From positions 310,001 to 374,000 of the forward strand of contig JARGXX010000077.1 in assembly GCA_030374765.1 (NCBI GenBank): a DNA stretch of 64,000 nt, given 5' to 3'. Source of the stretch: Agarophyton chilense (taxonomy: Eukaryota > Rhodophyta > Florideophyceae > Gracilariales > Gracilariaceae). Each line of letters begins with the position of its first letter. Within the stretch, counting starts at the first letter, position 1. The translations under genes were made by a program, and so were the position numbers. Shown one piece after another: positions 3,365-57,689 of the stretch. Below the pieces are notes generated by a model. That model made no database searches. It saw only the letters and a program-made list of their open reading frames with translations, and was not told where the DNA came from.

Positions 3365-3454
3365 CTCGACGGAAGAATATAAAGCAAACCAGTGAGACCG
3401 GAGAAATCCCGTTAAACGGAAAACAACCTCAGAGAGGACACAAGCGGTCTTGAC

Positions 3455-3472
3455 TTCTAAGTCGGGAGACCA
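3455..3472 (-). other. Primer binding site of element A
   Basis: On the minus strand the sequence TGGTCTCCCGACTTAGAA lies three bases inside the 5' LTR. It begins with TGG, the complement of a tRNA CCA end. The same 18 bases occur at the same place in element C and, with one mismatch, in D. It is not the usual initiator-Met site; the tRNA was not identified. Confidence 0.75.
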
Positions 3473-3475
3473 ATT

Positions 3476-4340: not shown

Positions 4341-4370
4341 GTCCTATTCTTAGTGGTCAACGCTACAACC

Positions 4371-6500: not shown

Positions 6501-9500
6501 TTTCGGGAGTCTCCCCTTCGGGAGAGGCGTCCCCAACAGTGAGGTTGACGACGCCCGAGGCGTCTCCGCCTCGCTCTCCGGTCACAATCCTCACGAAGAA
6601 ACAGGCCGTCTCAGACGTGGACTCTGAACACTTTGGTGTTCTACGTCGACCGTGGACACGTGTTCTTAACCGCCGGTTCCCGGATAGAGTCTTAGTAATG
6701 GCCAAGCGCAATTACAAGGTGTATGCCGACCTTGGCCTTTCTACCCAGTTTATGGTTCGAGTCCTTACTGTTTTGGACACAGGTGCTGGTCCGAATTTCA
6801 TCGTGGAGTCGCTGCTGCCCCCGCCCTTGCGGTCTCAGATCCGCCTTGGCGTGACGCCCGACGTAACGGACGCGAATAACAACCCGTTGTCAACGGTTGG
6901 AACCGTCGCTCTCGTCGTTCGCTTGGGCTCCTTCGTGGTGAAACTCGACTTTATTGTATGCCGGAAATTGGCTGCCCCCATCATCTTGGGATGTGACTTC
7001 TGTGACAGATTCGTTGACGCCATAAGGCCCCGCTTAAAGCATGTTGAGATGGAAGACGGCTCGTCGGTCCCGATTGTCCTTCGTCCGCTGCGGCGTGCCT
7101 CCAAGAAGCACGTACCGCTCCCTGCCGCGCAGGAACCTCCACCCGCTTCTCGGGAGTCTACCAAGCTCCGCGTGGCTGCGTCTGTCGAAATCCCTCCAGA
7201 GTCCCAAGTATGGGTGCGTGTCACTTCCCTTCAACACGGTTTACGAGTCATTCAGCCTCTCTCATCTCTGTACGATGGATATCAACTCACCGTGGCGAAT
7301 GGAGTCGCACAGATTGTCCCAGAAAAGCCGTTCACCGTGCTCGTTGCCAATCTGGGCTCCACCCCCCAGTCACTGGTGAAAAACCAAGTTATTGGATCGG
7401 TAATGCCTCACCCCACCGCGATGGTCCCCACTAGGCTGACCGCTGCCGAAGTCCTCGGTCGCGTTCACTCTAAGGAGGGGGAGGAAGCTGCCGTCCAAAC
7501 ACCGAGTGATTCGGAATCGCAACCTGCCGAAACAGAAAAGAAGCCCATTCCGACAAGTTACGACTGGGTAGACCCCGTGAAAGAACTCGAGGAACTCGAC
7601 CTCGGTCATGTACCGGAGTCACACCGTGAAAGTCTGCGTGAGATGTTACGGGAGTTTACCACAATGTGGGATGGCTCTCTTGGTGAGATAAATACAACGG
7701 AACACCGGATAGATTTATTGCCGAACACCCGACCGGTGGCTCAACACCCTTACAGGGCAGGCCCCAAGGCTCGAGAAGAGGAATAGTTCCAAGTGGACAA
7801 AATGCTCCGAGCTGGAGTGATCGAACCGGCTCAGTCGCCGTGGGCATCCCCAGTGGTACTGGCTCCGAAACCCGATGGGTCCTGGCGCTTTTGCATCGAC
7901 TACCGTCGCTTGAATGATGTTAACGTCAAGGACGTGTATCCGATCCCACGAATGGATGAGTACATCGACTCTCTCGGCACTGCTACCGTGTTCACGGCTT
8001 TGGACGCCAATTGGGGATATTGGCAGGTTCCCGTTAGGGAGGAGGACCAAGATAAGACTGCGTTTGTCTGTCACTCGGAACTCTACCGTTTCAAACGGAT
8101 GCCTTTTGGTTTAACCAATGCTCCCGCTACCTTTCAGCGTGCTATCGAAATTTTGTTGGCCCGCTTTAAGTGGCGTACTTGCCTCGTCTATTTAGACGAT
8201 ATCATTGTATTCTCAGACAATCTGGATGACCATCTCACCCATGTCAGGGACATAATGACCACGCTAGGTGATGCTGGAATAACCCTCAAACTGAGGAAAT
8301 GTGAGTTCTTTACCGATAATGTGAAGTATCTCACGCACATTATCCGTCCGGGACGTGTAATGATCGAGGAAGCTCGAGTGAGGTCCCTTCGCAAGGCGAA
8401 AGAACCCGCTACCCAGACGGAACTGCGCTCTTTTCTAGGATTGGTCAACGTCTACCGACGGTTTATCCCTAACTTCGCTGACATCGCGGCCCCCTTGAAC
8501 GCGCTTCTGCGGAAAGGTCAACCACCTAAACTGGACCCCTTTACGTCCGCCCAGACGGATGCTTTTAACTCCCTTAGGGAGGCTGTCACATCAGCACCGA
8601 TTCTATCGTTACCGAAACGCGGACTACCGTTTTCCGTGGACACGGACTCTAGCGACTACCATGTATGCTGTGCGCTCTTTCAAACTACTCCCGAAGGAGA
8701 ACGCATACCCATTGGGTACTGGTCACGCTCGCTCAATTTCCACGAGCGGAACTACTCCGTGTCGGAGAAGGAGTGCCTCGCAGTTTTGTGGGCCCTCTCT
8801 ACACTCCGCCCCTACCTCATGGGTGTGCACTTTACCGTTTACACGGATCACTCGTCCCTACGATGGCTCATGACCATCTCGGAGCCGTCAGGCCGCTTAA
8901 TGCGTTGGAGACTCCGCCTCGCGGAATATGACTTTGAAGTGATCTACAAGAAGGGCACTCAGAACGCGCAAGCGGACGCGCTCTCGCGTTTACCCACGAA
9001 TGGGGAAGCTCTAGCCGTCGATGACGAGGATATACCTTGCTTCGTCGTACACGATGGAACACCGGGGGACCCGGATTGGTTACAAGATAAATGGAACGAA
9101 AGCCCGGAATCAGATGATGATATTGACGCATTGCTCGTCTCGAACGGTTCAGAAAAACCCCCGCCGGGTAATTTTGTGCCGATACCCCCGGAGGAGATGG
9201 TCAGAGAACAGCAGGGCGACCCCTTCTGTACGAAGATTCGCGCCTGGCTTAATGGCGGTGCACAACTCCCTTTCGAGATGAACGATCTTGGATACCTCGT
9301 CAGGACGGTTCAGTCATCCCCGCAAGTCGTGGTGCCGCATACTCTACAATCTAGAGTTTTGCATCTATCGCACTATGCGAAACTTGGTGGACACGCCGGT
9401 GGACGGAAGCTCTACCTCACTTTGCGAAGGAATTTCTACTGGCCCGCCATGCCGGTGGATTGCTACGCAACGGTGCGGTTTTGTACCGAATGTGCTAAGA

Positions 9501-12244
9501 ATCGGGTGAAACTTCGCAAGTACTCAACGAAGTTGAAACTATTCCCGGCACGGGCTCCTCTCGAGTTTGTCGCCATTGACATCCTCTTTAAGCTCCTCAC
9601 CACACGACGTGGACATAAGTTTTTACTCGTTATCACGGATCGTTTCTCAAAACTGGTTCGGACCGTACCTCTACGGAAGATATCCGCTTTCACGGTTGCA
9701 CAAGCATTTGTAACCCATTGGGTATTCGTCTACGGCCCGCCGGTTAATCTTCTATCCGATAACGGAAAACAGTTCGCATCGCGATTCTTCGAGGACGTGT
9801 GCAGGATTTTTGACATCAAGAACCTGTTCACAACGACCTATCACCCCCAGTGTAATGGGCAAGTGAAGCGGTTTAACCGAACGCTATTAGCGTCTCTCCG
9901 TTCTTACGGGACCGACCACCCAAAGACATGGGATTTATATACCGACGCCTTGACGTTCGCGTACAATACGCAGGTACACCGTACTACGGGCTTGACTCCA
10001 TTCGAACTGGTCTTGTCCCGCCCTCCGCCCGCTGTCGCGTTAGAACCCCAGCCCACGCTGGATGCGTTCCCTTCCGTGAAGGATTATCGCCACAGGTGGA
10101 AAGAGTGGCTTACGAAGCTGATCCCGGTCGCCCGAAGCTCGATGGCTCGTGCCCAAGCCGCTTACAAGCGTGATTTCGACTCTCGCGTACGCGGTAAGGC
10201 CCCGCCAATCAAAGCCGGTGACTTCGTCTTCGTCCGTAAGGAGTACTGGAACCCTGAAAAGGAAAAGAAGCACAAGCTTTCTTCCGTCGCGGACGGTCCT
10301 TACAAGGCCATTTCGGTGAAAGACGACACCATCGTGGTGAAAATTGTCGACGCTCTTGAGCGGATCTCCCGCGACCGCGTTGTACTCGCCCCGCGACCGA
10401 CGTTGGAAGTAACCGAAATGGGTCAACAATCCCTCTCTGAGGATGATGGTGCTCGGCACACAACAGTGGCTCAGCCCACTGCCGTGGTTTCCAGACCTTC
10501 TGCGTTACCACACCCTACCCGAGGACTCTCTGACTTGCCGATCTTATCGGACCAAGGCCAGAATGGCCTCTCTTCTCTCACGCCACGGCGCGATGTCTAC
10601 CCCCGCCCGTTGGGCGTTTCAACCACTTCCCATGCCGCTCCGTCTCAGGAGGGGGAGGAGGCTCATAACTCTCGTCGAGAGACGGAAACCGCTTCGTCGC
10701 GTCATGACAACCGTGGTGCACGGACTTTTGGACACACCAGCAAGAACAACGGTGATCCGGACGTCCCGTCTACGGACGTGCCATCTCCGCATTTGCGCGC
10801 TACAGCCGTTGCTGAACCCTCCATAAGAAGCGCCACCGCATCTGCGTCTGATCGCACTCCCCACGGGGACTCTACTCGACAGGACGCACCACGTAGTGGA
10901 AACCCTCTCGCCGAAGCGAAACCGAAATCGTCGCAGGATGCTGTTCGCCCTCGCGATACTGGACCGGCTATGCCGTCGAGCGTTGACCCGCAGCCCGTGG
11001 GTCACGGTTCGTCGACACCAGCTACGCTGGAAAACTTAGAGCACGCCCTCGCAGGCCCCTCTAGGCCGAATCGATCGGAAGTGGTCCCTCGTACTGTACG
11101 GCAGGACACACCGGCTAAGCCGGGCAAGCACACCGTAGCAGACGGGAGATTCACACCCAGCACGCTTGATGCTGGTTCAGAACCCGCGCGCAGTGGCGGA
11201 CGCACTCCAAGTGTCTCGGGTGACCTCGACAGCGTTGTCGAAGGCGCACCGGTCACCCCGGAGAATGTGCCCGTCAAGGACGGAAGCACCTCGTCGCCGA
11301 GTGAAGTTGAACCCTCGAAAGGGATAGTTGAGGACGAACTCGCTCCCCGTAGGGGTTCCTCGCCGCGCACTTCGCCGCCCGTTGGTGAGGAAGGCACGGT
11401 TGACCCGGAGTTGCACGCCCGTCGCGGTACTTTGTCGCCCAAGCGAGCAGACATACCGGCAGCGCCGTTGCACACGCCCTCACGTGAGGAGGCGGAACGC
11501 AGCACGGCGCGGAGTACTCCCAGCCATCAGCCGGACGTGTCACGTGACCAGACGACACCCGGCTCGGAAGATACGCCAATCAACGCCCAAGGCGGCTCAC
11601 CCGGCAAGGCACGACGCCCCGTGATGAAACCGCCTCCCGCGTCAAGTCCAGCACCGTCGCGACGGATTTCACCCCGACGAATCGCGGAACGCGACCGCGA
11701 AACCCAGCCTTGGGATGAGCCCGCGTTCCCCCGAAGGGTGGCCTCTGCACGAGAACTCTCGGAAAGCATTCCGACCCAAAAACTGGGAGAATTGCCCCAC
11801 GGGAAGGCCTCCGGCCGAAGCCGTCGAACTGACGCTCGTCGTCATGACGCCTTGGCGGAAGCAACCCGCCAAGCGGCCAAGGCAACCCGGAACCCGGTTC
11901 GTTCCCCTACCCAGGGCATGGAAAGGCAACGCCAACCCATGGACTCCTCGGGGGAAGGGCACAGTAGCTCACACGCACCTGCGGACGTACACCGGTTTGG
12001 TCCGGTGACGCGTACACCGCAAGGGCGGGAAGTCTACGAGAAGGAGTTCGTGGTCGACCACATAGTGGAGCACTCATACCATCCGGATGGTTATATTCAA
12101 TACCTCGTCCGTTGGTACGGTTTAGGGCCCGAATGGGATTCGGATGAGCCGATGGAACATCTCCCACGTTCGAAGGTGGTGTCATATCACCGCAGAACGC
12201 GGACGGGAATCCCGGCATTGGTTGTTAAAGCCCAGGTGGGATAA
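6497..12244 (+). pseudogene. pol: Pol of element B: protease-RT-RNase H-integrase-chromodomain, one nonsense codon and a mutated integrase
   Basis: One frame of 1916 codons broken only by TAG at 7784-7786; element C has a Lys codon in that stretch. Before the stop: aspartic protease (LDTGAGPNFI). After it, counting from 7793: reverse transcriptase with first catalytic Asp at residue 71 and YLDD at 133-136; RNase H with VDTDSS and TDHSS; integrase with an HHCC finger (GGHAGG..CTEC) and catalytic Asp 596 and Asp 656. The Glu expected 35 residues later is Lys 692 (GQVKRFN, against GQVERFN in C). A Pro/Ser/Thr-rich, probably disordered linker of about 450 residues leads to a chromodomain (EFVVDHIVEH..VRWYG), which in this class reads histone marks to steer integration. 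Family assignment is firm; the element should not integrate by itself. Confidence 0.9.
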
Positions 12245-12423: not shown

Positions 12424-14361
12424 TCACGGGTTCGGCTCACCGCCCCCGGGTTGGTTACCTCCCTGGAGGCGGGTGATCAAGGCCTCGCGCATCGCGGCAA
12501 CATCGCCACTCGCTGCGTTGGTCTCCAGGCCCACCTGTCGCAGGAACTGGGAGATCACGGCCGCTTGACCCGCCGGAGCGGAGATCGCATCGCCTGGGGC
12601 GGACGCCCCACCACTTGGGAGATTCACCGGTGGAACCGGAGGTGGTCCAGCTACCGCGTACTCCGACCCAGCCCCCGCGGGGCTATCCAAATCCACGTAA
12701 GGCGTGGCTGGCGTCCCCGCGTTATAGGGAACTTCCGCTTCGGATCCCACGACCTCCGCCTCGGCGTACGCTTCCCCGTCGTCGGGTTCGTTGTCCACAA
12801 TTGGATCGTCGCCGTCGTAGACGTGGTAATATTCATCCGCGTCCACGAAACCGATCGGATGCCCCTCGGGGATATGGCGTGGTGCAAACCGGAGTTCGTT
12901 CGCTTCCTCCGCGGTGATTTCGTGCCCTTCCCAAGGGTCAAAGTATACGAAATCACCTCCCAAGGGAGTACGCCTTCCTGGTGACAGGTCCTGACCCCGG
13001 CTACCCACGGTGCGCCCGCTTTGTTCAATCGGAACGGTGGTCCAGTCCAACTAGTCGATGTAATCGAGAAGACCCGCCACTTCTTCGGCGTTAGTTACTC
13101 CACCAAGTGGGATGCTCAGGTCCAGGCTGCGAATCGCGGACCTCAACCGGAACGGGAGGAACCACAGTCTGTACTGGTCATACACCTCCTGGAGGATGAA
13201 CACCGCCGCGCGGACTGCCCATTCGGTAATCACCACGGACCACAGTCCGGACTCGGGATCCTCGATGAGGTACGAACCGTAATACGTGATGACTGGTGGC
13301 AGCTCGATGTAACAGCCCCGGCAGGCCTCGAGGTTCGACCACCACGGTGGAATGAGTACATAGCGACCCCATCGGTCGGCCACGCGAAGGCGTTCGATCT
13401 CCACGTTCTGATACGGGACCAAATACCCGAATCGGGATCGTGCTCGACGCTCGAAGCGGATCAGGGCGAGGAAGTTGGCCCGCGCAAGTCGACGCATGTA
13501 GCGGAATTCTGCCCGGATAATCGGTCGCGTCCAGCACATGGCCTCTTGCCGTGCTATCGGGATGCCCCTCCACGACAGTGTTTCCAAACCCGCCAGGCGG
13601 TCGACGTAACCAATTTCACCTTGAGTGCGGTAAAGCCGAATGTCGGTGCCGAGACCATCGGGGATGGGATATTCGAAAGAAGCCCGGCGAAGCCGTTGAT
13701 GGCCAAGAAGGACGAAGGCCGCATGAGCGGAAGCCGAGGTTTCACTACCCCGGCGCGCCACAGCGTGGACCGGAACCGCTACGTGGCGTCGCCAATCCAA
13801 CGAAGTTGTCGCCACGGCCAGAATATCGCCCGGAAGAATCCCGTTTCCATCGGTGTACATCGCTATGAGCGCTTCGTTTAACACCTCAATCGGGTGGAAC
13901 CACGGCGCGAGCCGGAGAACGGACGCATGATGCCCAGGATGGCGCCCGACAAGCATGTCGTATGGCGGCCACCCTCTCGGGGGGAACATTCCGTACGGAG
14001 CAGCAGCCGCGTTCGCGATAGGAATCTGCAGCGCAGCCGATGACGCGCTTTGCGGAAGCGGAGCGGACCGGAAGCCGGAGAAGTACCCCGCAGGGAGACG
14101 GTTGGGTTGATTGTTTTGGTTGCTCATCGGTGAGCGAAGAGGCCGGATGACCGGAAGAGGAGACCGGCGAAGCGAAAGACGATGCCGAGGAATCGGAGGA
14201 CTGGCACGCAAGGATGCGGACTCGGTTGAGATGGAACGTTGAGAACGGTTGTTCCCAGGAGACTGGAGTTTTGCCGCACTGCGTTTGTTGGCATTGGATG
14301 AAGTGGATCCCAGCGATCTGGTTGCACTCTTATGCATTCGTCTCGGCGCGTCGCCCACCAT
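12424..14361 (-). pseudogene. Antisense ORF protein (aORF) of element B, unknown family, one internal TAG
   Basis: A minus-strand gene of 645 codons running against pol, from ATG 14361 (second candidate ATG 14127, which fits the starts in C and D better) to a stop at 12424. A single in-frame TAG at 13051-13053 divides it; both sides align with the intact aORF of element C. Shared landmarks with C are APWFHP, a second block with RAEFR, then SRFG.LVPY..VE.ER, WWS, RGC..ELPP and, after the TAG, HPIGFV. The middle is rich in Trp, Tyr and Arg and looks globular; the C-terminal 150 residues are acidic, then Pro/Gly-rich. I see no signal peptide, membrane segment, zinc knuckle or enzymatic motif. 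I do not recognise the family. Its promoter should lie in or next to the 3' LTR, read backwards. Confidence 0.75.
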
Positions 14362-14384
14362 CGCGGATGTCGTACTCGCGCCTC

Positions 14385-27233: not shown

Positions 27234-27675
27234 TGTAACGTAATGACTGTTGGGTCAGCGTACGGGTCTCGACCGGTGGTAGCGTGGTAGAGCGGGTCCT
27301 AATGTTCGAATCCTTGACGGCGGCACTCCCAGAGTACTTGGTGCAATGAGCTGGCTTTTACTGCGTATTACTACAGGTTGGAGCTACGGAAACGATGGCT
27401 TGAAGACCAAAGGGTGGAACTAATATACCAAAGGTTATTTAGTATCCTAACAGTGCCTACCGTACTCTAAGGGAGAAGCGTCACTCGAGCCAAGTAAATA
27501 GTACTGGGGAGGCGCTGAGATCTCCCTGGAACTGTAATGATTATGTATAAAACTAATTAAAATAAATTAATAATCTACATGAGGCCACCTGAGGTCGACC
27601 CGTCCACGTGTCGTCTGCGAGATCCTTAGGGCCTGGCGGCTTACAGGGCTCAACCGCTATCACCCTTCCTTCACA
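27234..27675 (-). repeat. 3' LTR of element D (about 442 bp)
   Basis: Starts TGTAACGTAATGAC and ends CCTTCCTTCACA on the plus strand, next to the polypurine tract. It aligns base by base with 37581-37972 plus 38386-38535, and in inverse orientation with 33374-33891. A landmark is CTCCCAGAGTACTTGGTGCA. Confidence 0.8.
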
Positions 27676-28200: not shown

Positions 28201-30167
28201 ATGGCTTTGAACAACCAGCCGGGGAGCTCCTCGGGATACCAAGTGGCCTACGAACGTCCTGGGGACCGTTATGACCATACCATCGCCCGAAACCCGTGGG
28301 CAGTGCGTCATGCCACTCTTCCTTTCTCTGAGGAAGAATACTAAAGGTTTTGCAATATGTATCTTGAAGACCGAAGGTTTTCCAAGTTACTGTTTTTCCG
28401 GAGGGGCAGCATGAACGAGCGCAGCGTCTCGTGGTATAACGGATGGTTGCATTGTCCTGTGGATCCGCGTTCGGCGACGCGATGTCGCACCCTTGTCAAA
28501 GCGGACATGCCGTACGACCGCTGCGAGGAGGAAGCCGACTACCAGTTCAGGGTGAACAAACTCCTTTCGGACCTATACACGGACTTCATCTCGCCTCCTG
28601 TGGGCTTTCCTCCGGCTGGTCAAAACCTCTTGGAGCTTATGTGCTTCTGGCCACCGTACGACCGCTTATTCTGGATGTCCGACCGGGTCTATTGGAATGA
28701 GATGCACGAGCCCGATGGTCGTCTGCGTCAATCCCTGGGGTTCTTCTTTTGTTGACACAAAATGGAGTTTCACGATACGAGCGCCGACAAACGCCTTCCG
28801 TTGTACCTCTCGCTTCTTCACGAGGATGAGAACCAATGGGCCATGTATTGGCGTGTCTCGCTGCTACTTCTGGTTCCCACGCCGTCCGTGGTGGCGTACC
28901 ACTCGTCCCAACTCATGGGAGCTGACAATGACCGAAGGTCGTGGCTGTCCTGGCAGGTACTCTTCATTGAGTTCGGCGTGATGTCCCTTATTGCCTTTCT
29001 GAATACCTCGAAGTACGGAATCCGTGGTAATGTTCGTTTGGAGGATTGGAGGGTGCGGTACGATGAGAACATACCCGGTCCTAGACGTCGCCTAATCCCA
29101 CTCCCGGACATCATGATCCGTTTCCTAAGGAACCTGGGCATCCAGAATATCGTCCGTGAGACCCAGTTCGATGTCGAGGAGACCGAGGTTCTTTTGGATC
29201 ATGTCATACAGATGGAGTGGGGCAAGACTCCCGGGTTCCTTTGGTATGACTGGGATACCGACTCATTCACGCCGATTCCGCTTCATCCGTAGGGTCGGAC
29301 GACGCCCGTGCCTATCCCGCCAAGCGTTTGAGGAATCAACCATCGGACATTCCGAGGCGTCATGTGCCCGACTATTATCCAAAGGCCATTGGTTTCGATC
29401 CTCTTTGCTTCGAGCCTGATGTGGAAGCCGCGCCGTTGGTTCCTGCTGGTATGTCAAACGGAGAATCTTTTGGTGAAGATCCCTTTGTCTTACCCGTGGA
29501 GGGCGTTCATCCTCCGGTTGAGTCCGCCGTTGTTTTGCCGACCGGTTCTCCTCCTTCAGATCCTCCGGGCGCTGCTCCTCAGGATGAGCTCTCGTGTTAA
29601 CAGCCCGTCGCCCAAGTGATTATTCATCCTGGCGAGGTTACTGTCGACACCGAAAGTCCTGTAGGCGAGGCACTTGCTCAGACGTCCACCGGGGGCGTCA
29701 ACTTCGCTCCGTCCTCTCCGTTGGTTCACTTTCTTGCTTCGGTCACGGCTGCCGCCTCGGATCTCCGTCATGTCCGCCGTACCGTTGGTATCACGGCCTC
29801 GATGGACATTGCGACAGTCCTGAGGGAAGCATGCTCCTGGGCGCGTCGCTCGGCTCGCTACGCCGCGGGTGTCCAACAGAGTCAGGACCTGAAGACCGCC
29901 ATGGTCAATATCCTGCAGCACAATGCGCAGGCGATGTCCCAAAGGGTTACTGCCGACTTGGATGCCCGATACGGTCTCAATTTGAGAGACCAGGAGATTT
30001 CCGATGGTGACAATAGTTCCTCAGGAGAATCCCCGCGGAAGAAGCGTGCTCGGCTCGCTGGAGCCGGTTCGGGTGGTCCAGTTGGCTCCTCGGGGGACCC
30101 TAGTCCCAGTTTCTCTCCTGAGGGTTCAAATGAGGACGACGAAGTTACTACTGCGCCGCCCCAGTGA
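28201..30167 (+). pseudogene. Antisense ORF (aORF) of element D, third divergent homologue, broken
   Basis: A plus-strand gene running against pol. The start NNQPGSSSGY resembles NNQPNRLPAGY of the B aORF. The frame continues through in-frame TAA 28342-28344 and TGA 28753-28755, reaches TAG at 29290-29292, then shifts frame and runs through another TAA (29598-29600) to 30167. Matches to B and C lie in order: a Leu/Ile-rich helix (LFIEFGVMSLIAFL, against VITEWAVRAAVFIL in B), a Trp/Tyr/Asp block (GFLWYDWDTDSF, against DFVYFDPWEG), then HVPDYYPKAIGF (against HIPEGHPIGF). The C-terminal part is helical with a basic PRKKRAR cluster that could be a nuclear signal. Homology is inferred from these ordered blocks; identity is low. 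Confidence 0.6.
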
Positions 30168-37580: not shown

Positions 37581-38535
37581 AGTAACGCAATGACGGGTTA
37601 AGTCAGCGCACGGGTCTCGACCGGTGGTAGCGTGGTAGAGTGGATCCTAAGGTTAGAATCTTTGACGGTGGCACTCCCAGAGTACTTGGTGCAATGAGCT
37701 GGCGTTTACTGCGTAGTCCTACAGGTTGGAGCTACGGAAACGATTGCTTGAAGACCAAAGGGCGGAACTAATATACCAAAAGGGGTTATTTAATATCCTG
37801 ACGGTGCCTACCGTACTCTAAGGGAGAAGCGTCACTCGAGCCAAGTAAATAGTACTGGCGAGGGGCTGAGATCTCTCTGGCACTGTAGTGTTAGTCTATA
37901 ACACTAATTAAACTAATAATCTACATGAGTCTACCTGAGGTCGACCCGTATATGTGTCATATGCACGATCCATGTAGCAATTGGTTTTTCAGGTTTGTAT
38001 GTATTAACTTAATAATTACTGTGATGGTGCAATGATGCAAATGTAATTAAATTAAAAGGATTCAATTATTTTATCAACAGGTGCTTCTGTCGGGGAGGCA
38101 CTTCAGGGCACTCTTTCCGATCTGCACTTAGCAAGGGAGGAAGAGAGTGCCAGTGAGACTCCAGAAGCGCTTATATAGACTTTTGAAATATAAAGTAGGC
38201 GTACTGCATTAGGTAGTTATAGTACTTAGCAGTTACACCGAATAGTCCAACAATAAAAGCCTACGTTATTCTACATCACTATATTCCAGCAAGTCCAACT
38301 TCTAAACAACAAATCAATAAAAAGACCAATATAGAATTCCAACAAATAGTTCCTTCCATGCAATTATATCAACTCATAACAATCCAGGGCCCGGCGGCTG
38401 AGGTAGACCCCTACACGAGTCACCTGCAAGATCCTTCAGGGCCCGGCGGCTGAGGTAGACCCCTACACGAGTCACCTGCAAGATCCTTCAGGGCCCGGTG
38501 GCTTACCGGGATCAACCGTTATTATCGCTTCTTCA
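37581..38535 (-). repeat. 5' LTR of element D, split by a 410-bp insertion
   Basis: 37581-37972 matches the inner part of the 3' LTR; the outer part resumes at about 38386 (GAGTCACCTGCAAGATCC, then GATCAACCGTTATTATCGC) and ends near TTCTTCA 38535. The stretch 37973-38385 is AT-rich, has a TATATAG at about 38171 and AGAGTGCCAG near 38146, and has no partner in the other LTRs. At 38386-38490 a unit of about 52 bp is present in two full copies plus part of a third. Confidence 0.6.
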
Positions 38536-45930: not shown

Positions 45931-46846
45931 TGTGGAGCAAAACCCGGCGACGGGAAGTGCTCTCAAGGTGTTCGAAGCCTTGCTCCCTGGGGGAGGCAGA
46001 CTCAGAGACAGAGCCCTCCGTTCCACCCGTAGTGTGGGGTGTAACTCCCACGGGGGATTCCGGCAGTACCGTCGGAGGTGAGGGGTAGAAACCTTTGGAT
46101 CGGGAATGGGTATGGGTATCCCAAAGAATGGGGGAAAATCCGGCGAAGAGGAAAAACGGGGCGAGGGTCGGGCACTAACAGGCACCGGACCCGAGAACCA
46201 GAAAAGGGGCGAAACAACAAAAGAAACCCAATACAGAGGCGAAAACCTGTCCTCGAAAGGAAACACAAAAAGCACGCAACAAGTAAGCAGAACCCCCACG
46301 CGGTATCGTGCACGCAGGTCTTCTGAGCGGTCCCAAGGGGGTGGTTGCACGGAACCCAAACGTGGGCACTCTCCAAGTGGAGTCGTGTCCCTACGCAGGC
46401 GTTGCTAACCAGAGCCCGTTCCGGGTTGTAAGGCCGAAACGATGGCGACGAAGAACCTCTAAAGGTATCGAAGACCAACCTTGGTTACCATTTACTTTGA
46501 GCTTCGGACTGTCAGATCTCATCTCCCTAAGTAGGGCCCACTAACTAAACTCTACAGTAGTGCACACCTGCTCAGGGCCATACACGTGAAGATCCCACTG
46601 TCAGGGCCCAAAAGTCCAACGTTCTAACAAATATCCGAAAATCGTTGCCAAAATTAAGCCACGTGTATCACGGGGCCAATCCAATCATGGGCCATCCGAG
46701 TCTTCCCTTCATAGGCGAACTCTAACCAGAAAACAGTACCACCTCAGCACACCTTAGAGAGGATCATAGTCATAACCCTCGGAGGGTTCAATCCTCATTT
46801 TATGAGTTGTATCTTCAAGTATCCCCTAACTGAGCGTTGCTCTACA
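45931..46846 (-). repeat. 3' LTR of element C (916 bp)
   Basis: Plus-strand ends TGTGGAGCAA and TTGCTCTACA, which form inverted termini with one mismatch. Same length as the copy at 56769. Its TATA motif is changed to TATGAA, unlike the 5' copy. In the plus direction it lies directly upstream of the aORF. A 158-codon frame inside (46002-46478) repeats in both LTRs and is not called a gene. Confidence 0.95.
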
Positions 46847-46859
46847 TCTCCCCCTCCTT
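46847..46859 (-). other. Polypurine tract of element C
   Basis: AAGGAGGGGGAGA on the minus strand, directly next to the LTR start TGTAGAGCAACG. Confidence 0.85.
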
Positions 46860-46927
46860 AAGACGAGGAAGAACATTCCGAGCCGCGGGTGTCTCGCGTT
46901 CCAGTCGCTATATATACTGCCCTCCCA

Positions 46928-48784
46928 ATGAGGTCCTTCACCACTTCTGAGGATCGCCACAAAACCGGCACATCGGTACAACTTTCTTCTACTCCTCCGA
47001 CTTTCGGCGATAAGAAACTTCTCGCAACAGCAGTCTCAACCAGCCCTCTCAAGGGAATGAACCCATACGTCCTCAACCCACTCTCGGGGCCATCGGCCTC
47101 CGCGCCAGCGGACAACGAAGCTCCCCAGCAGGGTGGATATTTCTCCGGTTTGGATGCGGCTCCGGCCGGTACCGAACCTTCCGCCTCGGCGAGCAACCGA
47201 CATCCTCAGGGGGATTTGGACATTAACGCGGTGGCGTGGAACTCCGCTCATGCGATGCCCTTGGTAGCAAACTCCAGAGGTTGGATCTCGAAGGAATCCT
47301 TTCGAAGGTGGAGTCCCCTTACCGATCCGGTGATTTATTCCCGCGCTCCGTGGTTCCATCCGACAGCGGTTCGCGACGATGAGCTCATCGACTCCTACGT
47401 GGAGGACGGCTTATTGCCGGTTGGTTTACCTGTCGAGGTTGTACGTTCTCCCGATTGGAGGGCGCGGGTAGCCATAGAGCCTCAGTATCTATACCGCGGT
47501 CGCGGGGAGTCCCTGGACCAGGCGCGCGCAGCGATGGCGGCTCTGGCCTACCAGCGATTGGAGAGGTCACGCTTTGACCATCTGGTTCCCCTGGAGTACG
47601 GGTTCGATGTCGCCTATTACCGCACGTACGGTGAGGTCTCCTACGGGGATAACCTGGCAGCCTTTCCCGAAGCCGAGTTCCGCGGACCGGGTTTTCCTCT
47701 CCGAGAAGATATGCTCCAATGGAGTCGTCCCATCCTTCGGGCTGAATTCAGGGACCTTCAACGGCAGTTTACCCAGTATGGGTTCGATCGATGCGTGCGC
47801 TTCGAGCGCCGCTCGTGCTCCCGTTTCGGGTTCCTTGTCCCGTATCCTCACGTGGAACTGGAGCGTATCCGTAAGACGGCGAAGGTTGGGCGATTCGTGC
47901 CCCTTCCAGCTTGGTGGAGTAAGGTCGAGGTCCCCCGAGGGTGCTTTGCTGAACTGCCCCCATGCATCTACTATATCGGGTCTCGTTTGATGCACGACCC
48001 GAACTCGGGATACTGGGCCCTCGTTGCAGCCGAGTGGGCAGCCTGCGTAGCGGCGCACCTCCTCTGGGATGCTCATGACCATTTCCGTATCTGGTATATT
48101 CCTCCGATGCTACGGACCATCATGCGTCAGATCGACCTTGTCCCAGCATTGGGTTCGGCCAGCAGCGTGCAGGACCTGTATCCAATCTTGGACGTGATCG
48201 ACAACACCCAATGGGATCGAGTTCCAGTGGAAAATCAGCCCGCAGGGGAAGGATCCGCGCGAGACAAGTCTCCTGGCCGGTACGATCCGGGCTCCGGTAA
48301 CTGGGTCTATTACAATCCCTTCGAAGGGGTTGGCATCAGCGCGACGCAAGCACGGGCGCTGATTCACTCGCCTCGACCGATGCCGGTGGGACACCCGACG
48401 GGGTTCGTTTATACCGACGATTACGAGTACGAGCCTCCAGTAGACCTGGACGATCCAGCGTTGGATAACGATAGGCCAGCTCCTAGTGGAGTACTCCCTG
48501 TGGAGCCATCTGAACCCTTCCAACCAGTGGGAACGACCTCAGCTGCGGCGGCGAATGCATCCGGTGGCGGTCCATCTGCTCCCCCCAAGTGGGGTGTGAA
48601 CACCCTTGCGCAGGCGCCGGTTGCCACTCCGCAAGCGGATAGTGTGGGACAAGGCCTTGTGAACGCGGGCATTCCGATTCCCCCGAATATGACGGATGCG
48701 AGCCAGATGTTGGCTTTCGCCTCGGCGTACCATCAGGGTCAGAATCCCAACGGTGGGGCGAGTCCCTCCTCGGGCTTTCCGTAG
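46928..48784 (+). CDS. Antisense ORF protein (aORF) of element C, intact, unknown family
   Basis: Plus-strand gene of 618 codons from ATG 46928, opposite to gag-pol and convergent with it; the frame is open 13 codons further up but without ATG. A TATATATA-like run lies only about 10-20 bases before the ATG, so the promoter is more likely in the LTR. Landmarks shared with element B in order: GYFSG, APWFHP, RSRFDHLVPLEYG, RPILRAEFR, ERRSCSRFGFLVPYPHVELE, PAWWSK, RGCFAELPP, DPNSGYW and PVGHPTGFV. The N terminus (about 90 residues) is Ser/Pro/Ala-rich, the next 400 residues look globular with many Trp, Tyr and Arg, and the last 150 are acidic then Pro/Gly/Ala-rich. No signal peptide, membrane helix, zinc site or known catalytic motif is seen. 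Function unknown. Confidence 0.8.
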   Translation: MRSFTTSEDRHKTGTSVQLSSTPPTFGDKKLLATAVSTSPLKGMNPYVLNPLSGPSASAPADNEAPQQGGYFSGLDAAPAGTEPSASASNRHPQGDLDINAVAWNSAHAMPLVANSRGWISKESFRRWSPLTDPVIYSRAPWFHPTAVRDDELIDSYVEDGLLPVGLPVEVVRSPDWRARVAIEPQYLYRGRGESLDQARAAMAALAYQRLERSRFDHLVPLEYGFDVAYYRTYGEVSYGDNLAAFPEAEFRGPGFPLREDMLQWSRPILRAEFRDLQRQFTQYGFDRCVRFERRSCSRFGFLVPYPHVELERIRKTAKVGRFVPLPAWWSKVEVPRGCFAELPPCIYYIGSRLMHDPNSGYWALVAAEWAACVAAHLLWDAHDHFRIWYIPPMLRTIMRQIDLVPALGSASSVQDLYPILDVIDNTQWDRVPVENQPAGEGSARDKSPGRYDPGSGNWVYYNPFEGVGISATQARALIHSPRPMPVGHPTGFVYTDDYEYEPPVDLDDPALDNDRPAPSGVLPVEPSEPFQPVGTTSAAAANASGGGPSAPPKWGVNTLAQAPVATPQADSVGQGLVNAGIPIPPNMTDASQMLAFASAYHQGQNPNGGASPSSGFP

Positions 48785-49185
48785 TTCCGCCTTCGGGCAA
48801 TTGTGGAGTCCATAGCTTGGCGACAATAGTAAACTTCTGATATTTGCATATCTTCTTTTCTTCTTCCTTCCTAGGATCTTAACTTCTACTTCTTTTCTTC
48901 TTCTTTCTTAGGATCTTCTTTATCTTCGTCTTCATCTTCTTCCCTTCCTAGGGTCCAATCTTCTTCTTAATCTTCTTCTCCACTTCGTGGGTCTTCTTTT
49001 CCTTTTTTTTATCATAAACTGTCACGATAATCGGTGCTGTGTTCCCCCGTTAACGGCGCTAGGCCGAGGGCCAGTAAACATTCCCTCTCAATACGTGTTC
49101 TTCGGGATACTCTCCTCAATTCCTCTTCAGAGGTCCAACATCTTCCTCACTTCGAGGTCCCATCCACACCAGTTCCCGTGGTGGC
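48785..49185. other. Convergent gap of element C with CTT-rich tract
   Basis: 400 bases between the aORF stop and the chromodomain stop. From 48845 to about 48995 the plus strand is almost pure CTT/CCT, with two similar blocks that each end in CTAGGATCTT or TTAGGATCTT. It could act as a terminator or poly-A region for both directions; no ORF. Confidence 0.6.
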
Positions 49186-52100
49186 TTACCCGACTTGGGC
49201 ACGATCCAGATTTGGAGGCAAGGTTACCCGAGCGCGTCGGTGATAGGATAAAACCTTAGACCTCGGAAGGTGCTCAATGTTTTCCACTGTATCCTCATCA
49301 GGCGAGAATCCGTACCATCGGACTTGGTAGCGAACTTCTCCCTCGGGGGTGTAGATGTGACGCACGATGCGATCGATAACGAATTCCTGCGGGTACACTT
49401 TTCCCTGTTCGGGCTTCTCTTCCATCTTGGAACGCTCTAGTTCCCTTGAGGGTGTCAACGTAGGGTCTAGACACACCCCGGTGGGTTCTTTTCCGTGTTG
49501 CGAGCGGGTCTCAGCACTTCGTCCAAACGGCGCCGAGTGGCCTGTGGGCTACGTTGTAACCTCCGTCTACGGAGTCAAAACGGCCCAGTTTTGGGTTCTT
49601 CTTAAAGCTGAGATCTTCCCAATAACAACGGTGTTCTTAGATTCCGTGACGGTTGAGAAACCGCGATGCGGTAGCGTCTCCAATCTCAGAGGGGTAAGAC
49701 TTCAACGTCAACCAGAGCTACGGGGACGAAGGTTGCTCTTGTGCAACGCGCCGTGCGACGGAGGCGGTTTGCGCGACGGTTGGTCGTCAGAGCCTTTTGA
49801 TTGGCTCGGTGCCATTCGACGTGTGCCACATAAATGCGCGGGCGCCGGTTGCCACTCCGCAAGCGGATGTGAGGTGGCGCTTTCGACACGCGCTAGCACT
49901 CTCTTGAGCTGTCCGGGACGGGTCTCACTCATTTCTTTCCCATTCCTGAGGGTTCCAGTGTCTCCATAGGAGTTCCTATTCCCATTCCATAACGGAGAGC
50001 CAAATTTGGTCAACCTCGTCGTCGAGATCTTCCCCGTGCGGGTCCGCTGACACAGCTCGTTCCCGAGAAAGCGGGGTTTGAGTGTGCGACACCTCAGTGT
50101 CTTGTCCGCGGCGGCGGGTGATCGTCGGCTCTGTAGGCGTTCCGGGTAGGGAGTTCTCCACACGACTCTCCCTAGGCGGGTTTTCGTCATCTTTTTTGAC
50201 GTCGTGCTCGGCTGGGTCGGCGGTGATGTCGCTTCCCATATGCTGGGGTTGTGACTTCTCTGTCGCCGGCTCGGTCGGGCTCGCCGTCTCACTGTGAGAA
50301 CTAGATTCCCTGTTAGGGCGACTGGCTGACGCCGAAACATCGTCCTGCGAAGGAACTAAGTCCTCCTCCCCCTCCTTAGGCGGAGAGCCAGAAGGCTTGA
50401 TTACCTCCGGTGGGGGAGTAACTCTGTAAGAGTCCGTTGACTGGGCCCTTGAGGGAGCGGGCCCAGGTTCGGGAGTATCCGAAGTTTCCGGTAGGTCGGT
50501 TAAACCACGTTCCGGGTGCGGAAGTATAACGGGGCGGGTGTTCGAATCTCCGCCTGACGGGTTAACTTCCGTTGAATCATCCCCTGTGGAGGGCGTTGGT
50601 GCCGACACCACTTCCACGTTTGGGTTGGGCGCTCGTGTGATGCGGTCCCTGGAGATTCGTTTGTGGCGGTTAGCGATATCCAATACCACCGTGTCCGGGT
50701 CTACAGAAACCACACGATAGGGTCCTTCCGCAATTGGCGAAAGCTTGTGCCTACGTTCCTTTTCAGGATTGTAGTATTCCTTTCGAAGGAAGACGAAGTC
50801 GTCGGGCTCCACCTGAGGTAGAGGTTTGCGAACCCGATTGTCAAAGTCCTTCTTGTAGGCGCGTTGAGCTTTGTCCATTGCTTTCCGGGCTATCGGCACC
50901 ATCTTCGTAAGCCACTCCTTCCAGGCTTCTCGGTACAATCCCGGTGACGGGTACGTCGACAGCGTCGGTTGAGCCTCAATGGCGACCGGCGGCGGTGTCT
51001 TCGACAGTACCAGTTCGAATGGGGATAACGATGTAACCCGATGTACCTGGGTGTTGTATGCATACGTGATAGCGTCTGTGTACAAGTCCCAATTTTTGGG
51101 GTGATCCGCAACATACGATCTCAAAGCGTTGAGTATCGTGCGGTTAAACCTCTCCACCTGGCCATTCCCCTGAGGGTGATACGTAGTAACAAATAAATTC
51201 CTTACATCAAGGATTCGACATACATCCTGAAAGAACTTTGATGCGAATTGCCCTCCGTTGCCGGATAACAACTGCACCGGCGGTCCTTATACGAACACCC
51301 AATGGGTCACGAACGCTTGCGCGACGGTAGCGGCGGTGATCCGCTTCAGCGGCACAGTTCTCGTTAGCTTAGAGAATCTGTCAGAAATGACAAGCAGATA
51401 CCGATGACCTCGGGGCGTCCTGATAAACTCCCCTAGGATGTCTATGGCCACGAATTCGATTGGAGCCCGTTCCGGGAACAGCGTCAACTTCTTAGAGTGC
51501 TTCCGAAGTTTGATGTCATTCTTGGCGCAATTGGCGCAGGCCCGTCTGACGGCGTAACAATCGAATGCCATTGCCGGCCAGTAAAAGTCCCTTCTCAACG
51601 TGAGGTACAGTTTTCTTCCCCCGGGGTGGGCGCCAACCTTCACATAGTGAGTGAGGTGTAATACCCTCTGTTGTAGGGTGTGCAGCACCACTATCCTCGG
51701 GCGAGGTCCAACGGTCCTGATTAGGTAACCCTGATCGTCGTCCTCGAAAGGTAACTGAGATCCTCCGTTTAGGCGAGCCCGAATCCGTGTACAGAATGGG
51801 TCGAGCTGTTGCTCGCGTATCATCTCCTCTGGAGAGATAGGTATAAAAGAGCCGGTCGGCGAATCCAGACTCTCGTTGACGAGTTTATCGTCACAAACAT
51901 CATCCGTCAGCGGTTGAGCTCCTCCCTCGAGGTCCGATACCATAAAACATGGGATGTCATCGTCCTCGTAGGGTTCCGTTTCCGCTGTGGTTCCCAAGCG
52001 GGATAGTGCATCAGCCTGAGTGTTCAGCTTCCCTTTCTTGTACAGGATCTCAAAGTCGAATTCCGACAGTCGGAGACGCCAGCGCATAAGGCGGCCCGAG

Positions 52101-54510: not shown

Positions 54511-56541
54511 TTAGTTTTTCGAAGTGGACCCCACCGAATTCGGTGCAGCTGCCTCGAAGGGGACCGGTTGTTCCCCGTTCGCGGGTACAAGTTCTGTATC
54601 CCTGTCAGCAAGGTAAGCTCGGAGTATCCTTTGTTCCACATAGGACCTACTCGGGACTCGAGCTTTCTCCTCAGGGGTCAGAGCCTCGTACTGAGCGATA
54701 ATTCGTGAACCCTCCCGCAGGGGAAATGTGCAGTCTGGTGCTTTGTGACCACGGAGGTAACACAAATAGCAAATCAGCTCTGCCGGGTTCGGTTGTGGAC
54801 GTGAATCCACGCGACGTGGTGCTGTATCCCTCCATCCGGGGCGAGAGAATTGAGCAGCGGTATTCGCAAAAGGTAGCAATGCGGCTGGCACCCTCCGTCC
54901 TTGGGTATAGAGCGCAGGGTCTTCATCCGTAGTCGGAGCGGATGTCGACGGCAACTCAGACGTACCCATAGATTCGGGGTTACTTCCCATGAAGTGAATG
55001 TTATCATGGACCTCCACAGGGGCAGGGCCTCCTGCGAGTGATAAAGACGAGTTACCTCCATCGGCGAGGAGTGCACGTGTCGGCCGACTCTTTCGGTTCT
55101 GCCGGGCACAGAGAGTATCCCCCTCAGCCTGGGCGTACTGAACCAGTTCCAAGTAGGTCAGCTTGCGCTTCTCTTCCCGATGTCGGGCAACCAATGCCCT
55201 TATCGAGGGGTCCAAACCATCCACAAACATGGTGCATCTCTCGTAGGCGGGGAATACATTCCCGCATCGGTGAAACGCTTTACTCAAGCGAGTTGAATAC
55301 CTCGTTTCGGTTTCCATCAGCTTCTGCCGCGTATCCCTTAATGCAAGGATTGCTTCCTGAATCGCATTTCCAGTAGCGTATGACCTCAAGAGGTACTGCA
55401 CCGCTTCGGGCCAGCACGTGACTCCCCCTTCCGAGGCTCGGGATGATCCACGGACGGAGTTGAACTGGTCTTCAGCCATCCCCTTTAAGAAATAGGGTAA
55501 TGCAAGATACGCTTGCGCTTCACTCATACCGAGGATGTCAGCCTCCTGGACGAACCTCGCAAGGAAATCGAGCACCAGAATTGGGTCTGTTCCTGTGAAC
55601 TCCCTCTTCTGTAGGGTGATGCTCAGCCTTTTGATGTAGTCCTTGACCTTACCCGTTCCGCGGGATGTTCGATCTCCCGAAGGGTTATTCAACCGGTAAT
55701 AGCGGTACGATAGCAGCTTCCGATAGAGAGGATTCGTCGGCTTCAGCTCCCTTAATCCAAGGTGTTTCCTACCCTTCTTCTGGGTACGGATTGCCCCTTG
55801 AGAGGTGTAAGTAGCCTTCGACAGAGTCGCCCGGGATGACCGGCGTCCATCTTCACTATCCGAAGATTCGGAAGACGAACTCGATGACGAGCGATTGGGA
55901 TCGGAATCCGATAAATCCTCTTGGAGGTGAACCCTCTTCTTGGACTTGCGGCGGTCCCGTTTAGCGGAGCGGTGTTCTTCGTCTTCCGAAACGTTGAATT
56001 TATCCTTCGAGGCTTCTGTGTCTCCGTCCATACGGATAATGGCCTCGAGGGTGTCCAGCCGAGCTCGGAAGCGTTCCGCTTGCACGCGGTGTTCCTCCAC
56101 GAGGCTCCGGTACTCCTGGATAAAGACCCCAGGGGTACCAAAGCTTTCCAAAAGAGAGTTCACATCCCTCCTCAGGGTACGAAGGTCGTCGGCGACTCCC
56201 CCCACCTGGGCGTCCTCCACCTTGAGGCGGAGGGTAGTAACCTCCTTAAGGAGCTCGACGTGAGCCGCCTTGGCGATATCGATTCGAGTCTCCAGGCGCT
56301 GTAATTCAGGGTCGGCCCGACTTCGGGGTGCTGCTGAGGGAATCTCCACGACTGGAGCTGGGCCCACAGCCACGATCTCTCGAGGACCTGAAACCACTGA
56401 GGGTGCTCTCCGAGTGTCCGGATCGATACCGGAATCGTTCCGACCTTCGGGAATTGAGCTCCTCGGCCTAGGCGGGGCCGGGGGCACTGAATCCGCTTGA
56501 CGGTTCGATCCAGTCCTGGAACCACGGGTAGGCGGCGACAT
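54511..56541 (-). CDS. gag: Gag of element C
   Basis: Intact 676-codon Gag from ATG 56541 to TAA 54511-54513. N terminus proline-rich, then a helical segment with heptad-like Leu spacing (residues about 65-115), a Ser/Asp-rich region near residue 215-230, the capsid-like core TCWPEAVQYLLRSYAT and a zinc knuckle CYLCYLRGHKAPDC (CX2CX4HX4C). The end reads TCG AAA AAC TAA; pol continues in -1 over G AAA AAC. It lies 207 bases behind the PBS. With LTR promoter, PBS and Gag intact, this copy may still make particles. Confidence 0.9.
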   Translation of the reverse strand: MSPPTRGSRTGSNRQADSVPPAPPRPRSSIPEGRNDSGIDPDTRRAPSVVSGPREIVAVGPAPVVEIPSAAPRSRADPELQRLETRIDIAKAAHVELLKEVTTLRLKVEDAQVGGVADDLRTLRRDVNSLLESFGTPGVFIQEYRSLVEEHRVQAERFRARLDTLEAIIRMDGDTEASKDKFNVSEDEEHRSAKRDRRKSKKRVHLQEDLSDSDPNRSSSSSSSESSDSEDGRRSSRATLSKATYTSQGAIRTQKKGRKHLGLRELKPTNPLYRKLLSYRYYRLNNPSGDRTSRGTGKVKDYIKRLSITLQKREFTGTDPILVLDFLARFVQEADILGMSEAQAYLALPYFLKGMAEDQFNSVRGSSRASEGGVTCWPEAVQYLLRSYATGNAIQEAILALRDTRQKLMETETRYSTRLSKAFHRCGNVFPAYERCTMFVDGLDPSIRALVARHREEKRKLTYLELVQYAQAEGDTLCARQNRKSRPTRALLADGGNSSLSLAGGPAPVEVHDNIHFMGSNPESMGTSELPSTSAPTTDEDPALYTQGRRVPAALLPFANTAAQFSRPGWRDTAPRRVDSRPQPNPAELICYLCYLRGHKAPDCTFPLREGSRIIAQYEALTPEEKARVPSRSYVEQRILRAYLADRDTELVPANGEQPVPFEAAAPNSVGSTSKN
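54514..54520 (-). promoter_or_regulatory. Candidate -1 frameshift site GAAAAAC of element C
   Basis: Gag frame TCG AAA AAC TAA. G AAA AAC departs from the X XXY YYZ rule only at the first base, and the -1 pol frame is open across it. Element B has A GAA AAC at the same place. Confidence 0.4.
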
Positions 56542-56748
56542 GCTGCAGACACGACACCGACGATTCGGGGCAACGATGAAATTCGATCACGAGATTCCCG
56601 GAGAACGGATGACGTAACACAAAACAAAAGTAAAAACCAATTCCACCCTTTCCAAAAGGGACCACTACAACAAATCTTCACGACGGTGCTTCCTCTTCCA
56701 AGAGATATTCCAACACGTGGATGACCAACCCAAAAGTCCGAGAACGGA

Positions 56749-56768: not shown

Positions 56769-57684
56769 TGTGGAGCAAAACCCGGCGACGGGAAGTGCTC
56801 TCAAGGTGTTCGAAGCCTTGCTCCCTGGGGGAGGCAGACTCAGAGACAGAGCCCTCCGTTCCACCCGTAGTGTGGGGTGTAACTCCCACGGGGGATTCCG
56901 GCAGTACCGTCGGAGGTGAGGGGTAGAAACCGTTGGATCGGGAATGGGTATGGGTATCCCAAAGAATGGGGGAAAAACCGGCGAAGAGGAAAAACGGGGC
57001 GAGGGTCGGGCACTAACAGGCACCGGACCCGAGAACCAGAAAAGGGGCGAAACAACAAAAGAAACCCAATACAGGGGCGAAAACCTGTCCTCGAAAGGAA
57101 ACACAAAAAGCACGCAACAAGTAAGCAGAACCCCCACGCGGTATCGTGCACGCAGGTCTTCTGAGCGGTCCCAAGGGGGTGGTTGCACGGAACCCAAACG
57201 TGGGCACTCTCCAAGTGGAGTCGTGTCCCTACGCAGGCGTTGCTAACCAGAGCCCGTTCCGGGTTGTAAGGCCGAAACGATGGCGACGAAGAACCTCTAA
57301 AGGTATCGAAGACCAACCTTGGTTACCATTTACTTTGAGCTTCGGACTGTCAGATCTCATCTCCCTAAGTAGGGCCCACTAACTAAACTCTACAGTAGTG
57401 CACACCTGCTCAGGGCCATACACGTGAAGATCCCACTGTCAGGGCCCAAAAGTCCAACGTTCTAACAAATATCCGAAAATCGTTGCCAAAATTAAGCCAC
57501 GTGTATCACGGGGCCAATCCAATCATGGGCCATCCGAGTCTTCCCTTTATAGGCGAACTCTAACCAGAAAACAGTGCCACCTCAGCACACCTTAGAGAGG
57601 ATCATAGTCATAACCCTCGGAGGGTTCAATCCTCATTCTATGAGTTGCATCTTCAAGAATCCCTTAACTGAGCGTTGCTCTACA
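56769..57684 (-). repeat. 5' LTR of element C (916 bp)
   Basis: Direct repeat of 45931-46846 with about nine substitutions. It carries the promoter of gag-pol. Ends TGTGGAGCAA and TTGCTCTACA on the plus strand, followed by TAATG. Confidence 0.95.
57546..57551 (-). promoter_or_regulatory. TATA box in the 5' LTR of element C
   Basis: GCCTATAAAGG on the minus strand, about 135 bases into the LTR. The other LTR copy has GCCTATGAAGG, so only the 5' copy, which drives gag-pol, keeps the TATA box. Confidence 0.5.
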
Positions 57685-57689
57685 TAATG
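57685..57689. other. Target-site duplication TAATG, right of element C
   Basis: Identical to 45926-45930. Confidence 0.9.

What the first reader, a model, noticed from the sequence alone, without database searches (positions are those of the whole stretch)
46928..48784. Intact, convergent antisense gene (aORF) in a chromovirus, with relatives in two other elements
Element C carries an uninterrupted 618-codon gene on the strand opposite gag-pol, between chromodomain and 3' LTR. Element B (12424-14361, minus) and the older element D (28201-30167, plus) carry recognisable relatives at the same position and in the same antisense orientation. Block order is conserved (APWFHP, RAEFR, LVPY..VE.ER, WWS, RGC..ELPP, HP.GF). 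Survival of one protein across three diverged elements implies selection on it. Antisense extra ORFs are known in some plant Gypsy elements, but I recognise no family here. It could be a regulator of silencing, a packaging or movement factor, or an antisense-transcript driver.
Basis: partly seen in the sequence, partly recalled or inferred. Interest (0 to 1): 0.88.

Follow-up and report, generated by a model that had tools for sequence, protein, structure and literature searches.

The report
Antisense accessory gene of red-algal retrotransposons
Many gypsy-type jumping genes in a red seaweed carry an extra gene, read backwards near one end, that encodes a conserved protein of unknown shape kept by natural selection; plants have comparable backward genes, but this protein family matched nothing known.

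Summary
Window 46928-48784 (+) is an open antisense ORF of 618 codons between the chromodomain end of pol and the 3' LTR of a chromovirus. It is no singleton: relatives lie in at least six element families of this genome (C, B, E, G, F and distant D), 484 scored places. In the checked example of each family the ORF converges on pol. Integrase and aORF divergence run in parallel (r = 0.90; 1 of 720 labellings as good), so the gene descended with the elements. Between families dN/dS is 0.22-0.36. Among 30 C copies, shared changes are constrained (ratio 0.36), private ones near neutral (0.93); in B the signal is weak (0.68, not significant). The protein has a mostly helical predicted core without Pfam or PDB match and an acidic linker. 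Antisense genes at this place are known in plant Tat-type Gypsy elements (Grande, Retand), but their domains were not found in the proteins scanned. Best reading: a trans-acting accessory regulator; the nuclear/regulatory step is inferred. One C copy with uninterrupted pol has lost most of its aORF core, so need in cis is not shown. New variant of a known kind.

The parts
46928..48784 (+). aORF of element C, 618 codons plus stop from the first ATG; likely start 47057 (575 aa); open frame from 46862
46909..46916 (+). TATATATA box, candidate core promoter of the aORF
   Evidence: only TATAWA place found in 46848-46927; 19 of 986 80-nt windows of the internal region of C hold one; 19 of 30 C copies keep TATAWA here, 11 read TATACA
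45931..46847 (-). 3' LTR of element C (element reads on minus)
   Evidence: 99.0% identical over 917 bp to 56769-57685
56769..57685 (-). 5' LTR of element C
46848..46860 (-). purine-rich tract next to the 3' LTR (polypurine-tract candidate), upstream of the aORF start
   Evidence: read from the sequence
49186..49548 (-). end of pol with chromodomain (Pfam PF00385, E 1.4e-7)
48785..49185 (.). gap of 401 nt between the two convergent stop codons
49976..54604 (-). pol ORFs of element C (RT, RNase H, integrase), interrupted by one in-frame stop at 51287; the chromodomain lies in another frame further on
54511..56586 (-). gag-region ORF of element C
   Evidence: no Pfam domain at E below 0.08
12424..14382 (-). 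aORF of element B, broken by one in-frame stop (pieces 13051-14382 and 12424-13050)
7787..12244 (+). pol ORF of element B with chromodomain at its end
28201..30164 (+). decayed aORF of element D (several stops and frame changes)
27235..27625 (-). 3' LTR stretch of element D, 88.1% identical to 37582-37971

Best explanation
The ORF is a genuine accessory gene of red-algal chromoviruses, gained before the six element families split and inherited with them. A TATA-type promoter just inside the 3' LTR drives a convergent antisense mRNA (inferred from sequence). The product has an orphan globular core of about 370 residues, an acidic linker and a C-terminal pair of helices (predicted, the last at low confidence). 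It most likely works in trans as a nuclear accessory regulator, binding chromatin or host transcription/silencing factors through its tails to keep the family's LTRs active or to assist integration, in the manner proposed for maize Grande gene23 and plant Retand TRP28 proteins. Shown: coding, selection, position, co-descent. Inferred: promoter use, nuclear site, regulatory action.
For: Coding and selection: shared changes in 30 C copies N33/S40 against private N243/S113 (Fisher p 2.7e-4); between-family dN/dS 0.22-0.36 over all aligned codons. Co-descent: r 0.90, Mantel 1 of 720, six families. Position: the aORF is convergent with pol in 58 of 58 paired C places and in one checked example each of B, C, D, E, F and G. 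LTR-side flank reaches the same end in 28 of 29 C and 28 of 29 B copies compared. Promoter: TATA box at 46909, no TATAWA in the 3' LTR on that strand. Architecture: acidic linker in 10 of 10, mostly helical core. Analogy: PMC7264820 and PMC11963269.
Against: No fold or family match gives a function. A simple NLS pattern occurs in only 2 of 10 sequences. TATAWA is exact in only 19 of 30 C copies, and none was seen in the leaders held for one E and two D copies (195, 233 and 117 nt); for F and G no leader was held. One C copy with an uninterrupted 1542-codon pol has an out-of-frame deletion of about aORF codons 74-390, and 38 of 96 integrase places had no listed aORF (capped lists). In B the within-family signal is weak (ratio 0.68, p 0.34). 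Raw pairwise pN/pS, private changes included, is 0.54 in C and 0.66 in B.
Confidence: 0.42

Rival explanations
1. The aORF makes a structural or ribonucleoprotein partner of Gag: a second particle protein, packaging factor or chaperone, made from an antisense mRNA.
For: Folded core with conserved arginines and aromatic residues; long, abundant, co-inherited with pol.
Against: No CCHC zinc knuckle (0 of 10), no Pfam gag or capsid match, no structural match; core charge close to neutral, linker acidic rather than nucleic-acid-like.
Confidence: 0.22
2. The protein counters host defence by a route other than LTR transcription, for example by blocking RNA silencing or replication-related surveillance.
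For: Faster evolution than integrase while still constrained (aORF identity 0.18-0.59 against IN 0.35-0.74), as expected of a factor that meets host proteins.
Against: No direct evidence; fast evolution is common to accessory proteins.
Confidence: 0.18
3. The useful product is the antisense RNA (a brake or dsRNA trigger) and the reading frame is incidental.
For: Convergent arrangement with a 401-nt gap in C could give overlapping 3' ends; antisense regulation by such transcripts is discussed in PMC7264820.
Against: Codon-level constraint within C and between families; protein-level homology with D at 18-24% identity.
Confidence: 0.05
4. An env-like or movement protein.
For: Located between pol and the 3' LTR, as env genes are.
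Against: Antisense to gag-pol; highest 19-residue hydropathy 1.17-1.70 in ten sequences, so no clear membrane segment; no match to viral proteins by Foldseek with the weaker first model.
Confidence: 0.04
5. Chance open frame or a decaying nested insertion.
For: GC-rich sequence favours long ORFs; many copies are broken (31 of 71 scored C places hold stops).
Against: Same protein at the same place in six families, under constraint.
Confidence: 0.01

Closest known systems
Antisense aORF-3R genes of plant Tat/OTA Gypsy elements (maize Grande gene23, rice RIRE2, Silene Retand ORF4 with Transposase_28)
   [quoted passage not shown] own promoter and nuclear product reported for Grande (PMC7264820, parts 1 and 2 of 3 read); the candidate TATA here fits an own promoter.
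   Different: Carriers here are chromoviruses with chromodomains in a red alga; no TRP28 or PMD domain in the proteins scanned; one protein family spans at least six element families, whereas plant Ty3/gypsy extra ORFs fell into 314 groups by blastp (PMC6317226, passages and sections 9 and 13 read).
Antisense ORF of fungal Boty (Botrytis)
   Same: Antisense ORF between pol and 3' LTR outside plants (named in PMC7264820).
   Different: Not compared by sequence; its protein was not at hand.
HTLV-1 HBZ and other antisense retroviral proteins
   Same: Antisense gene at the 3' LTR end; HBZ is nuclear and shapes the virus life cycle (as told in PMC11963269, passages).
   Different: No bZIP or other Pfam domain here; the candidate TATA is inside the element, not in the LTR; no sequence comparison was made.
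Bdelloid rotifer LTR-retrotransposon ORF3s
   Same: Extra ORFs in LTR elements (PMC5408684, passages).
   Different: Family-specific and of mixed kinds (DEDDy, GDSL); no Pfam domain was found here.

Membership tests
Chromovirus (carrier) | Chromodomain at the end of integrase | tested here: met
   C: PF00385 E 1.4e-7, over cut-off; B: E 1.3e-4, under cut-off; D: 35% to C's chromodomain region, E 4e-8; E, F and G: similarity to the end of B pol
Plant Tat/OTA antisense aORF class | Antisense ORF between pol and 3' LTR, kept in most copies | tested here: inconclusive
   position and orientation met; the share of copies that keep it is only bounded: 58 of 96 integrase places with capped lists
Plant Tat/OTA antisense aORF class | Transposase_28 (PF04195), in antisense ORFs of 97% of Retand clusters | tested here: not met
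   no match in hmmscan of 7, 9 and 2 aORF proteins; genome search: one place under cut-off (E 0.05, C115:1611170), none over it, with no control over cut-off either
Plant Tat/OTA antisense aORF class | Plant mobile domain (PF10536), Ogre | tested here: not met
   hmmscan of the same proteins none; the whole-genome search is inconclusive because its controls did not ring
Plant Tat/OTA antisense aORF class | Carrier is a non-chromovirus | tested here: not met
   chromodomain present
HBZ-like antisense retroviral gene | bZIP domain | tested here: not met
   no Pfam match
HBZ-like antisense retroviral gene | Antisense transcript starting in the 3' LTR; nuclear protein | not testable with these tools
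   no RNA or cell data; sequence hints only
Env-like protein | Sense orientation and membrane segments | tested here: not met
   antisense; 19-residue hydropathy at most 1.70; no dedicated membrane-segment program was run

The most novel reading that the evidence does not exclude
Chromoviruses of florideophyte red algae own an ancient antisense gene with a fold not yet solved, whose product acts in trans on chromatin so that whole element families, including copies that have lost the gene, stay active: a retrotransposon-borne anti-silencing or activator system that arose independently of the plant and retroviral antisense genes.
Probability: 0.25. Interest if true: 0.78.

Novelty: new variant of a known kind. 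Interest (0 to 1): 0.56.

Why it matters
Antisense accessory genes of LTR retrotransposons are described mainly from flowering plants; extra ORFs there are heterogeneous, and no function is established (PMC6317226, PMC7264820). Here one protein family is retained across element families whose integrases are only 35-74% identical, under measurable purifying selection and with hundreds of places to compare. That makes the question of what such genes do testable, with conserved residues as handles. If it is a regulator or anti-silencing factor, it could help explain the expansion of Gypsy elements in red seaweeds.

Tried and rejected
Function by similarity: Pfam scans, PDB sequence search, Foldseek with a weak first model, and Foldseek and VIA-align with the better second model against the PDB gave nothing usable. 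A weak DUF6127 match to the C-terminal helices (E 0.013, below cut-off) and a weak E3_binding match in 1 of 9 members (E 0.24) were not believed. The likeness of the C-terminal helices to SAP-type motifs was by eye and recall only and is not claimed. Viral contigs held no relative. The alignment search of the protein database returned only P0002; only the 7997 candidates sharing most words were scored. TATA boxes in other families: B has TATATA 312-315 nt before its frame opens in 27 of 30 copies, too far off to interpret. A chance or nested-TE origin and a pure antisense-RNA role were rejected on selection and co-descent. The ranking of copies is by protein score, so stop-free counts (40 of 71) are biased upward and are not used as evidence. 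Counts of copies are lower bounds (capped scoring); families were assigned by identity band, and only one copy each of E, F and G and two further copies of D were read as proteins.

Paper searches (the top of each list seen) showed no red-algal antisense Gypsy ORF; this covers open-licence PMC papers only. Steinbauerova 2011 and Gomez-Orte 2013 were not read (seen only in reference lists). PMC6317226: sections 9 and 13 and passages; PMC7264820: parts 1 and 2 of 3; PMC11963269 and PMC5408684: passages.

Full report
What is there. The window holds several Ty3/Gypsy elements of a red alga. Element C reads on the minus strand between LTRs of 917 bp that are 99.0% alike. On the opposite strand, from 46928 to 48784, lies an uninterrupted ORF of 618 codons that stops 401 nt before the end of the chromodomain reading frame. 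The frame is open from 46862, 15 nt from the LTR edge. A TATATATA begins at 46909, the only TATAWA place between LTR and first ATG; 19 of 986 windows of that size in the internal region hold one. The next in-frame ATG, 47057, is kept in 29 of 30 copies (the first in 27) and matches the start of the closest database relative, P0002. I take 47057 as the likelier start.

Host and spread. The 3 database hits of the D-type protein are from Agarophyton chilense, Gracilariaceae. The assembly searched has 79.8 Mb. Scored places, all lower bounds from capped lists, were: C 170 in two searches together (union in 117); B 79 and E 16; D 150; F 69; together 484. Families were told apart by identity: the lowest B or E hit was 53% to B, all F hits were 43-48% to P0004. 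A further family G was read at one place (L065). In the checked examples the aORF faces pol: C and D in the window, B, F and G, E. A first E copy has another element's gag-like ORF beside it and showed no pol within 2.2 kb; a second copy did. For C, 58 of 96 scored integrase places had a listed aORF within 5 kb and 58 of 58 were convergent; 38 had none in these capped lists.

Is it more than chance? Yes, by four lines. First, homology: B, E, G, C, F and four database proteins align over about 370 residues. D is distant, but scores 69.8 (E 4.5e-8; 51.4 with two D sequences only) against a maximum of 27.7 in 120 column shuffles, two reversed profiles and five other element proteins. Second, selection within C (30 of the 71 places): biallelic sites carried by one copy have N/S 243/113, ratio 0.93 to the neutral expectation; sites shared by two or more have 33/40, ratio 0.36, Fisher p 2.7e-4. 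So copies are constrained while they multiply and drift once inserted. One reverse frame shows the same ratio (0.37) because its third positions coincide, but it holds 23 stops. In B (30 copies) the shared ratio is 0.68 and not significant (p 0.34). In the small chromodomain ORF of the same C copies, shared N14/S6 shows no constraint. Third, selection between families: over all aligned codons dN/dS is 0.25 (B-E), 0.22 (B-G), 0.27 (E-G), 0.36 (B-C) and 0.45 between two D copies; dS is near saturation for the between-family pairs, so these are rough. Fourth, co-descent: aORF and integrase identities over 15 family pairs correlate at 0.90, and only the true labelling of 720 reaches that. The two six-taxon trees agree on B with E and on D and F as far branches, but differ on the weakly supported place of C and G. 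The aORF changes faster (0.18-0.59 identity) than integrase (0.35-0.74).

How it probably works. The arrangement (own TATA-like promoter, antisense, convergent with pol, conserved protein with an acidic activator-like region) is that of an accessory regulator made in trans. PMC7264820 reports for maize Grande an antisense gene with its own promoter and a nuclear product, and PMC11963269 reports predicted DNA binding for the Retand TRP28 domain. I commit to a nuclear, trans-acting regulator at 0.42. Against it: the nuclear step has little sequence support. One C copy with an uninterrupted 1542-codon pol frame lacks about aORF codons 74-390 in a frame-changing deletion (the two pieces were read apart). 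That copy shows that the gene is not strictly needed in cis, or that the deletion came after insertion; I cannot tell which. Packaging factor and other counter-defence roles are the main rivals.

Known or new. [quoted passage not shown] The plant survey PMC6317226 found extra ORFs in most OTA elements, 314 groups of them in Ty3/gypsy, and PMD, Transposase_28 and Athila ORF-1 as the most prominent domains. Here the carriers are chromoviruses, the lineage is red algal, and a single family is shared by diverged elements; none of these domains was found in the proteins scanned. The genome searches for Transposase_28 and PMD add little: one sub-threshold place for the first, and no control over cut-off for either. 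I found no description of this family in the lists of eight answered searches of open-licence papers. Verdict: new variant of a known kind, a new protein family as far as these libraries show.

Noticed in passing
window 15314-18909 (minus): ORFs of 357, 350 and 256 aa directly beside the 3' end of element B (about 15321), reading like RNase H plus tyrosine recombinase (DIRS/Ngaro-like, by eye and recall); the two tested had no Pfam match at E 0.01.
   Followed up: no
window 1-4304: A further related element on minus (pol 55% to C; gag-region ORF 1241-3526) lies head to head with B; no 5' LTR copy for B was found in 1-5000.
   Followed up: partly
L071 and L072 (G000:C111:915200-916500): C copy with uninterrupted pol frame but an internal, frame-changing aORF deletion with a 9-bp overlap at the junction; may mark an aORF-less subfamily.
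   Followed up: partly
L031 oriented positions about 773-886, against L033-L060: Among B copies a stretch between the element's end and the aORF breaks the alignment in many copies (21 of 29 compared gave more than one piece), suggesting LTR subtypes.
   Followed up: no
window 27233-27627, 33423-33892 and 37582-37971: A third D-type LTR-like stretch in inverted orientation lies inside element D at 33423-33892, about 91% complementary to its 3' LTR, perhaps a nested solo LTR.
   Followed up: no
G000:C40, C47, C54, C55 and C34, C114, C115: Identical-score aORF hits on several contigs, hinting at duplicated contig ends or segmental copies in the assembly.
   Followed up: no
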